NCBI GenBank assembly: GCA_005191415.1 | Contig: SUPS01000003.1 | Location: forward strand, 1-39,592 | DNA: 39,592 nt | Source of the DNA: Candidatus Helarchaeota ASGARD archaeon Hel_GB_A | GTDB lineage: Archaea > Asgardarchaeota > Lokiarchaeia > Helarchaeales > HEL-GB-A | Reading direction: 5' to 3' | Part shown: positions 9,341 to 13,382 of the stretch, one piece after another | Position numbering within the stretch: position 1 is the first letter of the stretch | Layout of the letters: every line of letters begins with the position of its first letter | The notes under the pieces: model-generated | What the model was told of the DNA's origin: nothing | The model's input: the letters and a program-made list of their open reading frames with translations, nothing else | Database searches by the model: none | Position numbers and translations under genes: made by a program

Positions 9341-10036
9341 ATGGCATTTATAGAACGGGAGAACGAGATACTCACAACAATTAAAACATTGGTAGATTTG
9401 AAACTTGATTTTATTATAGTAGGAGGGTACGCTGTTAGTAGTCTCGCAAGACATAGATTCTCTGTTGATTGTGATATAGTTCTTTCAAAGAAAAATCTTG
9501 AAAAATTTCAAAAAGTTTTGGAAAGTAAAGGATTTAAGAAGCATATTGAAAGTTCGGGTTTTGATGAATCATACAATGGTATGTTTGTAAATTACAGAAA
9601 AGAAGTCATAGGGTTTCCAGTTACAATCGACTTGCTTATCAATAGTTTAGTTAGTAGATCCACTGGTGCATCATGGAGTTTCGATTACATTAAAAAAAAT
9701 TCTATTGAAGTAAATCTCTCTGGTCTTAAAACTTCGGTTCGTTGTAAAGTTCCTAAAAAAGAACTTTTAATTGCTTTTAAAATTCATTCGGGGAGAAAAA
9801 CAGATATAAGAGATATCATCATGCTTAATGAGAATGTGGATTTAAAAGAGGTCTTGAGCCATCTAAAAAGGGGACATATTGATGAATTGAAGAATCAGAT
9901 TAAAAAGATATTTTTTTCACTAGATGATAAAAATCTGGTAAATTCTTTAAAGGGAATTTTCACAATAACTAATGATGTTGAAAAGGAAATAAGGAATACG
10001 AAAAAATTTATTGAGAAAATTTTGAAGAAATTCTGA
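9341..10036 (+). CDS. AbiEii-like nucleotidyltransferase
   Basis: IIVGGYAVSSLARHRFSVDCDIVLSKKN: GG + DxD NTase signature; downstream K/D-rich region KELLIAFKIHSGRKTDIRDIIML. Confidence 0.75.
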   Translation: MAFIERENEILTTIKTLVDLKLDFIIVGGYAVSSLARHRFSVDCDIVLSKKNLEKFQKVLESKGFKKHIESSGFDESYNGMFVNYRKEVIGFPVTIDLLINSLVSRSTGASWSFDYIKKNSIEVNLSGLKTSVRCKVPKKELLIAFKIHSGRKTDIRDIIMLNENVDLKEVLSHLKRGHIDELKNQIKKIFFSLDDKNLVNSLKGIFTITNDVEKEIRNTKKFIEKILKKF

Positions 10037-10166: not shown

Positions 10167-10625
10167 ATGTTGTTAGGGGCTGCACTTCAAGAATTAAAGA
10201 TTATGCAAAGTAAGCTCTATCGGCTATATCGACTACGGCAAGATACATTTAATGTACTAGAGAATAAGAAGACAGAAGTGGATTTCGATAAATTAACCAA
10301 AGAAATTAACGATTTAATCTTAGAAATACGCGATCTCAAAGTAAAAATTAATAAAACCAATACAAATACGAGAATCAATGTTGAAGGTAAAGAAATGACC
10401 ATTACAGAGCTAATTATCAGGATCGGAGATTTACGTTCAGAACTGAGCCAATTGGAATCGCTTCATCCAAAGGGGCCAGTTTATCTTGGGGGACAAGCCG
10501 TTGAATACATCCCGCAAAAGAAACAAGATGAACTTGCCGCAATGATTGCCGAGATGGAGCAGCGTAAAGCAAACTTAGATAAAATTCTTCAATCAGTAAA
10601 TTGGAAGACCGAGTTACTCGATTAA
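10167..10625 (+). CDS. DIP1984-family (septicolysin-like) protein
   Basis: LGAALQELKIMQSKLYRLYRLRQD...LILEIRDLKVKINKTNTNTRI...TITELIIRIGDLRSEL pattern. Confidence 0.7.
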   Translation: MLLGAALQELKIMQSKLYRLYRLRQDTFNVLENKKTEVDFDKLTKEINDLILEIRDLKVKINKTNTNTRINVEGKEMTITELIIRIGDLRSELSQLESLHPKGPVYLGGQAVEYIPQKKQDELAAMIAEMEQRKANLDKILQSVNWKTELLD

Positions 10626-10636
10626 TTTAATACCAT

Positions 10637-10849
10637 CTGTAGCGAAGAATAGACCGTGGATTAAGGGCAAAAAGATGACTTTCCCGAACGCGATTCGGGG
10701 ACCTTTCCGTCGTGTTGGGTTGCTTTATTGGTTAAAAATCACTATGCTCACAATTCATGGATCATTGCTTAAGGCTCACAACTTCGTTGTCTTTTTAGCA
10801 TCTTGATCCATTGGGGCGAATCCCCCCTACGGATTCAAATTCGCTACAG
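10637..10849 (+). ncRNA. Candidate structured RNA (unknown class)
   Basis: Closing stem CUGUAGCGAA/UUCGCUACAG (10637-46/10840-49), GAAU/AUUC (10647-50/10833-36), CCGUGG/CUACGG (10654-59/10827-32); internal hairpins 10675-10713, 10757-10811, 10813-10825. Strand unproven. Confidence 0.55.
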
Positions 10850-10906
10850 CACCACCATTTAATTTTTACCAATTTTTTTATACAATCATTCATGTATTGA
10901 TTGTCA

Positions 10907-12154
10907 ATGCAGATTTTACATATCGCACCTCGTTATTTTCCTGCCATTTCTGGGAGTGAATTTTACATTCAACGAATATCAGAGATACTCCACAAGAGAA
11001 AGCATAGGATTAAAGTATTCTGCTCAAATGCCTTAGATTTTAATGCATTTGGAAATCCTAATGGAAAAAAAATCGAAGAAGCACATTCTAAAATTGGTAA
11101 AGTCGATATTTACAGATATCCAATAAAATATATCCCCGGAGTTAGTTTATTTTTCAATAATTTTTATTCACATTATAAACAAATTTTAAAACACTTTAGT
11201 GCGAGGCATATTCTTCCTTTTGGTTATCTTAATTTATTAACTAATGGTCCCTTCGTCCCGAACCTCTTTCTACAAGCGTTACAATTCCAAGTTGATATAA
11301 TTCATTCCGTTTGCATGCCTTTTGCGACAAATTTATTCGCATTGATGGCAGGCAAAATCAAGAAAATCCCGACAGTCTGTACTCCTTTTTACCATTTTAT
11401 GAATCCTCGATACCATAATCCATCCTATGTAAAGTTTTTGAATAAATTTGATCGGATTCTTACATGTTCTGAAAGGGAATCCAACTATCTTACTAAGCAT
11501 GGGCTTTTAAAAGATAAAATACGGCGTATTCACATGGGTATTGATCCCAAAAAATACTTGAAAGGTAATGACAAGCGGTTCCGGGCGCAATTTCAGTTAG
11601 ACGATGAGCAGAAGCTCGTATTATTTTGTGGTTATAAAAATTTTGAAAAAGGGGCGATTTCACTTCTTCTTTCTTTGAAATATGTGGTTAAAAAATATCC
11701 TAATTGTACTTTTATGTTTATAGGTCCCAGTACGACGGCATTCAATAGAGTTAAAAGAAATTTGAAAGATCTTCGCTCTCATATTATTAATATAGGCGTT
11801 GTCCCCTACTATGCGAAAGTAAAGTTAGATGCCTTTGCAGCTCAAGACATTTATGCAATGCCATCTCGAAGCGAAGCGTATGGTATTGCGTATTTAGAAG
11901 CTTGGATTAATAAAAAACCTGTAATTGGTGCGAATTTGGGTGCTATGCCTGAGATCATCCAACAAGGGATGGATGGACTGTTAGTACCATTTCATTCACC
12001 TCGTGAATTAGCAAAGGCTATTCTACAACTTCTTACAAATGAGGAATTGGCCCGCCAATTAGGGACGAATGGATATCAAAAGATTCAAAATCACACGTGG
12101 GATAAAGTTGCTACGAGAATCGAAAAAATATATCAGGAGTTGATTCGGCATTAA
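10907..12154 (+). CDS. Glycosyltransferase family 4
   Basis: MQILHIAPRYFPAISGSEFYIQRISE, HMGIDPKKY, MPSRSEAYGIAYLEAWINKKPVIGANLGAMPEIIQQGMDGLLVP. Confidence 0.92.
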   Translation: MQILHIAPRYFPAISGSEFYIQRISEILHKRKHRIKVFCSNALDFNAFGNPNGKKIEEAHSKIGKVDIYRYPIKYIPGVSLFFNNFYSHYKQILKHFSARHILPFGYLNLLTNGPFVPNLFLQALQFQVDIIHSVCMPFATNLFALMAGKIKKIPTVCTPFYHFMNPRYHNPSYVKFLNKFDRILTCSERESNYLTKHGLLKDKIRRIHMGIDPKKYLKGNDKRFRAQFQLDDEQKLVLFCGYKNFEKGAISLLLSLKYVVKKYPNCTFMFIGPSTTAFNRVKRNLKDLRSHIINIGVVPYYAKVKLDAFAAQDIYAMPSRSEAYGIAYLEAWINKKPVIGANLGAMPEIIQQGMDGLLVPFHSPRELAKAILQLLTNEELARQLGTNGYQKIQNHTWDKVATRIEKIYQELIRH

Positions 12155-13382
12155 ACCGAGGCGCCAAAGGATTCCTAAAACCCAGTATTCTTACTTTAAT
12201 AATAAACAACTCTCCATTGTAAAGGGAGAGCTCATAATTGATGGAACCCCTGCGTCCTCTCTTATTAAACAATACAAAACTCCTCTCTATGTCTTTCTCG
12301 AGCAAAGAATTCGGGAAAATTGTCGAATACTCACAACTTTAACTCAGAAATTTTTCAAACCCCGGATTTATTATTCTTATAAAGCGAATTATTTACCCTC
12401 TATCTGTAAAATTATTGCCGAGGAAGGACTTGGTGCTGAGGTTGCCACAGAATTCGAATATTCCCTCGCTAAGCAGCTCCTACAAGATCCCGAATCCATT
12501 ATTTTGAGTGCGCCTTATAAAACGCCTACCTTTCTCCAACGCGTAATATCTGATGAAATCGGATTAATTCTCATATGTCAAATCGATGAAATTGACGAAA
12601 TTGCGGAAGCCATAACAAGTCCGTACATCCAAAAAGTAGGAATTCGATTACGAAGTCCTCGTCCAAATAAGCAAATTGGCGTTTCAGGCGATAAAGATAC
12701 TATTTCTAAAATAACCGAAAAATTGAATAAGAACAATAACCTCTCCCTCACGACACTCCAATTACATTCTGGAACTCAATTGGATGACCAACTTTTTAAG
12801 GAGGGTATCACTTACCTATTAGATACGGCAAATATGTTTGAACAACAAGGTTTTTCCATTTCGCAGTTAGATTTTGGCGGAGGTTTTCCTGAAGCAAGTA
12901 ATCTTTCCGAGGACGATTTAACCGACCTTTTCCTTTTACTTTATGAAACTTTGCATGATCGAGGATGGCAACACGTTACCTGCATTTTTGAACCTGGACG
13001 TTACATCGTGGGTGATGCAGGATTGGTTTTGACACAAATCATTCGCGTCTTTAAAGTCGAAGGTATTCCTTGGATTATGCTTGATACTGGAACTCATCAG
13101 TGCCCTAAATTTTCAAATAGTAAATTTCGTTTCGAATTAATCCATCGCATGTCAGACCCACACACTACCCCTACCTCTATTGCTGGTTGTCTCCCAACAG
13201 ATATGGACGTATTTACTAAGCGCTACCCCTTCCCTAGTCCTGTTGACAAAGGTGAATATCTGGCAATCCTCAACGCAGGTGCCTATACGCTTACCTGGTC
13301 TACTCGTTTCAGTTATCCATTTCCATCTATCCTTTTAGTTAATGGAAATCGAATTCAGCTGTTGGAGGTACCACAAATTTGA
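12150..13382 (+). CDS. PLP-dependent decarboxylase, ornithine/diaminopimelate/arginine decarboxylase 2 (LysA-like) family
   Basis: YYSYKANYLP (PLP Lys), LHSGTQ, LDFGGGFP, EPGRYIVGDAG, AGCLPTDMD, NAGAYTLTWSTRF. The track ORF begins at 12504 and omits the PLP Lys; frame is open from 12144 with no ATG/GTG/TTG before 12504, so start (12150 ATT or 12171 ATT) is tentative. Confidence 0.8.
   Translation: MKPRRQRIPKTQYSYFNNKQLSIVKGELIIDGTPASSLIKQYKTPLYVFLEQRIRENCRILTTLTQKFFKPRIYYSYKANYLPSICKIIAEEGLGAEVATEFEYSLAKQLLQDPESIILSAPYKTPTFLQRVISDEIGLILICQIDEIDEIAEAITSPYIQKVGIRLRSPRPNKQIGVSGDKDTISKITEKLNKNNNLSLTTLQLHSGTQLDDQLFKEGITYLLDTANMFEQQGFSISQLDFGGGFPEASNLSEDDLTDLFLLLYETLHDRGWQHVTCIFEPGRYIVGDAGLVLTQIIRVFKVEGIPWIMLDTGTHQCPKFSNSKFRFELIHRMSDPHTTPTSIAGCLPTDMDVFTKRYPFPSPVDKGEYLAILNAGAYTLTWSTRFSYPFPSILLVNGNRIQLLEVPQI

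What the first reader, a model, noticed from the sequence alone, without database searches (positions are those of the whole stretch)
10637..10849. Highly base-paired ~213-nt intergenic element: candidate novel structured RNA
Seen directly: ends are exact 10-nt reverse complements (ctgtagcgaa / ttcgctacag). Inside, GAAU/AUUC and CCGUGG/CUACGG continue the same stem (20 pairs with small internal loops). Within it: hairpin AUGAC-UUU-CCCGAA-cgcga-UUCGGG-...-GUCGU (10675-10713); AUGGAUCA...UGAUCCAU (10757-64/10804-11) enclosing UGCU/AGCA and ACAAC-UUC-GUUGU; and GGGG-cgaau-CCCC (10813-10825). This nested, branched layout is unlike a simple terminator, and I recognise no RNase P, SRP, tRNA, riboswitch or intron core motif. 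Inference: a stable ncRNA, a leader/riboswitch of the downstream GT4-decarboxylase pair, or a structured mobile element.
Basis: partly seen in the sequence, partly recalled or inferred. Interest (0 to 1): 0.82.

Follow-up and report, generated by a model that had tools for sequence, protein, structure and literature searches.

The report
Unlisted RNA paired with DUF6847 gene
The folded stretch is a real, evolutionarily conserved non-coding RNA gene that sits directly behind a small gene of unknown function (DUF6847/DIP1984) in Asgard archaea and also in bacteria, where one copy lies inside an RNA-repair operon and several carry a tRNA-like hairpin, so it gives a mystery protein family a testable RNA partner.

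Summary
The 213-nt element (10637-10849, Lokiarchaeia MAG) is real: it is the strongest fold outlier of 184 window tiles (z about -4.5) and has no Rfam match. It is not a leader of the downstream GT4 gene and not a detectable repeat. It belongs to the gene in front of it, DUF6847/DIP1984 (10167-10625). A covariance model of the element finds a full-length relative in a second Asgard genome exactly behind DUF6847. The two copies are 65% identical with unrelated 3' flanks and six two-sided compensatory pairs. A model of both finds G034 (E 0.006) and weakly G119, again exactly behind DUF6847. Bacterial DIP1984 genes have the same layout: a model from three actinobacterial loci hits only Paracoccus and a faecal phage contig, both exactly behind DIP1984. 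T-arm-like hairpins occur in 9 of 21 such stretches (0.34 expected); the window copy lacks one. In one Acinetobacter record the order is rtcB-orf-DIP1984-RNA-rtcA. Best reading: an RNA that forms an RNP with DUF6847, analogous to the Ro/YrlA tRNA mimics of rtc operons but not YrlA. Expression, binding and function are untested, and a 2016 review that may already describe a related RNA could not be read.

The parts
10637..10849 (+). structured non-coding RNA, about 213 nt
   Evidence: z about -4.5; relative in the same place in G003 with covariation; no Rfam match
10637..10646 (+). closing helix P1, 5' arm
   Evidence: pairs with 10840-10849; 3 two-sided compensatory pairs against G003
10840..10849 (+). 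closing helix P1, 3' arm
10647..10650 (+). GAAU, pairs with AUUC 10833-10836; in G003 GAUU/GAUC
   Evidence: read by eye from the alignment; one two-sided and one one-sided change
10654..10659 (+). helix P2 (CCGUGG), pairs with 10827-10832 (CUACGG)
   Evidence: 5 of 6 pairs invariant in G003
10683..10719 (+). hairpin domain closed by CCC(G)AAC/GUUGGG; the same place holds the T-arm-like hairpin in G003 and G034, but not in this copy
10757..10811 (+). long hairpin with the UUAAGGCUCAC motif shared with G003
   Evidence: z -5.1 on its own
10813..10825 (+). GGGG/CCCC hairpin
   Evidence: one two-sided compensatory pair against G003
10863..10880 (+). T-rich stretch after the RNA, possible archaeal terminator
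   Evidence: sequence; inference
10167..10625 (+). DUF6847 / DIP1984-family protein, 152 aa, the linked gene
   Evidence: Pfam PF20935 E 1.9e-12; NCBIfam DIP1984 E 3.5e-15 but below its curated cut-off; profile match to PDB 3kdq E 7.7e-6

Best explanation
The element is the gene of a structured non-coding RNA that forms a two-gene module with the DUF6847/DIP1984 gene 11 nt upstream. Shown: conserved structure, conserved position directly 3' of DUF6847 in Asgard archaea and of DIP1984 in several bacterial phyla, a T-arm-like hairpin in many members, and one bacterial copy inside an rtcB...rtcA RNA-repair operon. Inferred: the RNA is transcribed (with DUF6847 or from its own promoter, ending at the T-rich stretch) and is held by the helical DUF6847 protein as an RNP. 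The tRNA-like part would recruit or decoy enzymes that act on tRNA in RNA damage or stress, much as YrlA does with the Ro-like protein Rsr. In the window copy the tRNA-like hairpin is missing or strongly altered, so this copy may use another contact or may be decaying.
For: Model R1 (window alone) finds G003:C5:698383-698599, full length, E 0.005 in that genome (5.5e-5 in the small search), directly behind the DUF6847 gene that lies at 698635-699090 on the same strand. Six two-sided pair changes, 0-1 when partners are slid by 1-3 columns. Element conserved (0 of 200 shuffles reach its alignment score), 3' flank not (185 of 200). Model R3 (window+G003): the best two matches in 115 kb of other loci are G034 L063:6299-6532 (E 0.0059) and G119 L068:2920-3139 (E 0.52), both directly behind DUF6847. 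Model R2 (three actinobacterial loci): the only two matches in 162 kb are L077:1975-2127 (Paracoccus, E 8e-5) and L073:240-409 (faecal phage contig, E 0.003), both directly behind DIP1984; 7 two-sided pairs in the actinobacterial alignment. T-arm-like hairpins in 9 of 21 downstream stretches, 0.34 expected. Neighbouring genes other than DUF6847 are not shared between Asgard loci. Acinetobacter L082: RtcB (E 1e-105), a 166-aa protein, DIP1984, 260-nt gap with the RNA, RtcA (E 2e-73).
Against: No expression or binding data. DUF6847 is in only 9 of 232 Asgard genomes at best, and only window and G003 match strongly, so Asgard covariation rests on few sequences, in an alignment fitted to the window's structure. 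R2 does not find the window and R3 does not find the bacterial copies, so the archaeal-bacterial link rests on shared position, closing stem and T-arm rather than one model. The window copy has no T-loop. Fixed-window fold z-scores across all 21 loci are only modestly below controls (-1.55 versus -0.62), and GC-rich bacterial copies are not outliers. The rtc linkage was seen in one record.
Confidence: 0.62

Rival explanations
1. A 3' untranslated regulatory element of the DUF6847 message: a stability or termination structure, or a site where DUF6847 binds its own mRNA to regulate itself, rather than a separate RNA.
For: Always directly behind the gene (11 nt here), same strand, T-rich stretch after it.
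Against: Large, branched and with tRNA-like hairpins in many members; far more than a terminator. G048 and G035 have about 60 nt between gene and RNA, compatible with an own promoter.
Confidence: 0.15
2. A two-part selfish or stability module on plasmids and mobile DNA, in which DUF6847 and the RNA act on each other, as in RNA-protein toxin-antitoxin pairs.
For: 371 plasmid records carry DIP1984; scattered distribution in Asgard genomes.
Against: No tandem repeat units as in type III systems; one copy lies in an rtc operon; no sign of toxicity seen here.
Confidence: 0.1
3. A decayed, non-functional copy of the RNA in this genome.
For: The window copy lacks the T-loop that G003 and G034 keep.
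Against: It is the best folded window stretch (z -4.5), keeps P1/P2 with compensatory changes, and its DUF6847 gene is intact and 75% identical to G003.
Confidence: 0.08
4. A leader or riboswitch of the GT4-decarboxylase pair downstream.
For: It lies about 50 nt before the GT4 open frame.
Against: Absent from ten other loci with the same GT4-decarboxylase pair; relatives of the RNA are next to other genes.
Confidence: 0.02
5. A structured mobile element (MITE-like) with 10-bp terminal repeats.
For: Exact terminal inverted repeat.
Against: Single copy, no close DNA relative in 198 related genomes, no flanking duplication seen, relatives keep one gene neighbour while the ends change with compensation.
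Confidence: 0.02

Closest known systems
YrlA / bacterial Y RNAs with Rsr (Ro60) in rsr-yrlBA-rtcBA operons (PMC8394870, PMC7790460)
   Same: Modular RNA with a large stem joining its 5' and 3' ends and a tRNA-like part; gene next to a small partner gene; inside an rtcA-rtcB RNA-repair operon (here seen in one Acinetobacter record).
   Different: Partner gene is DUF6847/DIP1984, not Rsr; longer (136-215 nt versus 90-150); no Rfam hit to a Y RNA family even at relaxed threshold; T-arm-like hairpin in only part of the members and absent from the window copy.
'Novel tRNA-like molecule' of RNA-repair systems with SPFH/Band-7 modules (Burroughs and Aravind 2016, doi 10.1093/nar/gkw722; recalled from its abstract, paper not held)
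   Same: tRNA-like RNA encoded in RNA-repair gene neighbourhoods.
   Different: Could not be compared; I do not know whether that RNA is the one behind DIP1984. No SPFH gene was seen among the neighbours I read.
tmRNA
   Same: tRNA-like hairpin within a larger RNA.
   Different: No tmRNA found by ARAGORN or Rfam; no reading frame, no tRNA acceptor/CCA recognised.
DIP1984 family protein, PDB 3kdq
   Same: The protein encoded next to the RNA (profile match E 7.7e-6).
   Different: Deposited as an uncharacterized conserved protein; no function or RNA partner is stated in the table.

Membership tests
Rfam families (any of 4227) | covariance-model score at or above gathering threshold | tested here: not met
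   window 0 matches, relaxed search only chance matches, related bacterial stretches none
YrlA / bacterial Y RNA | score to the Rfam Y RNA families | tested here: not met
   no match even at E up to 5-10
YrlA / bacterial Y RNA | large stem joining 5' and 3' ends | tested here: met
   P1/P2 with compensatory changes
YrlA / bacterial Y RNA | tRNA-like D and T arms | tested here: inconclusive
   T-arm-like in 9 of 21 loci, D-arm-like only in the actinobacterial consensus; absent from the window copy
YrlA / bacterial Y RNA | gene next to an Rsr/Ro60 (TROVE) gene | tested here: not met
   neighbour is DUF6847; Pfam of the window neighbours shows no TROVE
DUF6847-linked RNA (this report) | directly 3' of a DUF6847/DIP1984 gene, same strand | tested here: met
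DUF6847-linked RNA (this report) | structure conserved by compensatory changes | tested here: met
   few sequences
DUF6847-linked RNA (this report) | RNA is expressed and bound by DUF6847 | not testable with these tools
   needs RNA-seq and binding assays
MITE / insertion element | multiple copies or target-site duplication | tested here: not met
   single copy; flanks show no duplication

The most novel reading that the evidence does not exclude
DUF6847/DIP1984 proteins and the RNA behind them form a further kind of tRNA-mimic ribonucleoprotein of RNA repair and stress, separate from Ro/Y RNA and tmRNA/SmpB, shared between Asgard archaea, several bacterial phyla, plasmids and phages, and not yet in Rfam.
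Probability: 0.35. Interest if true: 0.78.

Novelty: new variant of a known kind. Interest (0 to 1): 0.64.

Why it matters
DIP1984 is a protein with a solved structure, hundreds of plasmid-borne copies and no known function. A conserved RNA behind its gene, sometimes tRNA-like and once inside an rtcB-rtcA operon, turns 'unknown function' into a direct test: does DIP1984 bind this RNA, and does the pair matter when tRNA is damaged? It would also add an RNA class shared by Asgard archaea and bacteria that current RNA libraries do not hold, so existing annotation leaves it blank in hundreds of plasmids.

Tried and rejected
BLASTN of the element in 198 relatives gave only chance-length matches of up to 43 nt. 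One end-pattern search used a gap range too short to match even the window (my error), so its zero means nothing; a correct pattern in viral contigs found nothing. The 68-aa open frame through the element has no Pfam, PHROG or genome relative. tRNA-with-intron or tmRNA: ARAGORN negative. GT4 leader and MITE: see rivals. Finding DIP1984 in plasmids with the archaeal proteins failed; it worked with the 3kdq sequence. Viral contig scans with DUF6847 alignments found no relative. A finer tile scan timed out. R3 over 229 Asgard genomes found no copy away from DUF6847. G077 and G119 downstream stretches are weak members.

Full report
What was checked. Ten-nucleotide inverted repeats are common here (62 within 300 nt in the window), so the ends alone prove little. 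The overall fold is exceptional: z -3.95 and -4.5, the extreme of 184 tiles. G+C is higher than in the flanks. Rfam has nothing at gathering or relaxed thresholds.

Where it is. The window is a contig of a Lokiarchaeia MAG: relatives of the GT4 protein next door are all Lokiarchaeota apart from one weak bacterial match. The element lies between DUF6847 (10167-10625; PF20935, DIP1984 family) and the GT4 gene (10901-12154). In ten other Lokiarchaeota the GT4 gene follows a divergent gene with no room for the element, so it is not a GT4 leader. It is single copy, with no DNA relative in 198 genomes.

The relative in the same place. A covariance model from the window sequence alone (R1) was run over 198 related genomes. 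Only one other genome matched below E 0.1: G003, full length, E 0.005, directly behind its DUF6847 gene. That position was not given to the model, which makes the match far stronger than the E-value says. The copies are 65% identical over aligned columns; the 3' flanks are unrelated. Six pairs changed on both sides and kept pairing, versus 0-1 in slid controls, three of them in the closing helix. The alignment was fitted to the window structure, so this is good but limited evidence.

More Asgard loci. DUF6847 occurs in about 8-9 of 232 Asgard genomes. A model of window+G003 (R3) was searched against 115 kb of other loci. Its two best matches, G034 (E 0.0059) and G119 (E 0.52), both lie directly behind DUF6847. 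G048 and G035 have long closing stems that differ in sequence but pair, CAGTTG-TATCGAC/GTCGAT-TCAACTG and CAGTTAGTTCGA/TCGAACTAACTG. The other neighbours of DUF6847 differ from locus to locus, so gene and RNA travel as a pair.

Bacteria. A profile of the Asgard proteins matched PDB 3kdq. With that sequence, 371 plasmid records were found, 342 of them Acinetobacter, plus five phage records. Downstream stretches of Picosynechococcus, Acinetobacter, Psychrobacter, Enterococcus, Paracoccus, Streptomyces, Streptantibioticus, Mycobacterium and a faecal phage contig carry a closing stem, in most of them with a GGCGAG- or AGCGAG-like 5' internal loop. A model of three actinobacterial copies (R2) matched only Paracoccus (E 8e-5) and the faecal phage contig (E 0.0027) in 162 kb, both directly behind DIP1984. 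So one RNA family spans Actinomycetota, Alphaproteobacteria and a phage contig. The archaeal and bacterial models do not find each other; that link rests on position, architecture and the T arm.

tRNA likeness. A T-arm-like hairpin (four or more pairs around TTCRANN) is in 9 of 21 downstream stretches, against 0.34 expected from shuffles and 0.04 per 250 nt in the background. Examples: G003 ACCGG-TTCGAGT-CCGGT, Streptomyces TCGGG-TTCGACT-CCCGA. One of the nine (G035) is a doubtful match, and two Streptomyces loci are close relatives, so the independent count is nearer seven. The actinobacterial consensus places a GCGC/GCGC hairpin with an eight-base loop just before it, D-arm-like. The window copy has no such T-loop.

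RNA repair. In one Acinetobacter record labelled as phage (L082) the order is rtcB, a 166-aa protein, DIP1984, RNA, rtcA. Known rtc operons of Salmonella carry Rsr and Y RNAs, the latter with a long terminal stem and tRNA-like domain (PMC8394870, PMC7790460). This is the basis for 'works like YrlA'. Membership fails: different partner gene, no Rfam match.

Judgement. Shown: a conserved structured RNA linked to DUF6847/DIP1984. Inferred: expression, RNP formation, a role in RNA damage. Unknown: prior description. A 2016 review (doi 10.1093/nar/gkw722) mentions, as I recall its abstract, a novel tRNA-like molecule in RNA-repair systems; it is not held here, so novelty is stated cautiously.

Noticed in passing
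window 12141-13382: The decarboxylase frame is open over its full conserved length (about 409 aa, as in relatives) but has no ATG, GTG or TTG before 12504: unusual start codon or sequence error.
   Followed up: partly
L066 (G077:C760) 373-2756: A DUF6847 gene sits inside an array of nine tRNA genes, including tRNA-Ala with anticodon AGC, on a 5.3-kb contig with 52% G+C; it may be a virus, plasmid or contaminant.
   Followed up: no
window 9341-10036: The gene before DUF6847 encodes a distant nucleotidyltransferase (NTP_transf_5/DUF6036, below cut-off); not found at other DUF6847 loci.
   Followed up: partly
L040-L049: In ten Lokiarchaeota the GT4 gene lies behind a divergent gene of about 130-150 codons and is followed by a gene of about 407-423 codons, probably the decarboxylase, where the locus reaches that far.
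   Followed up: no
L082 981-1481: A 166-aa protein without Pfam match lies between rtcB and DIP1984; A. baumannii AB57_3343, directly downstream of rtcB and induced 252-fold by tigecycline (PMC7652931), may be its counterpart, not tested.
   Followed up: no
window 10167-10622 (protein): DUF6847 matches PHROG 1491, annotated 'tail fiber protein' (E 1.3e-8), probably a misleading label.
   Followed up: no
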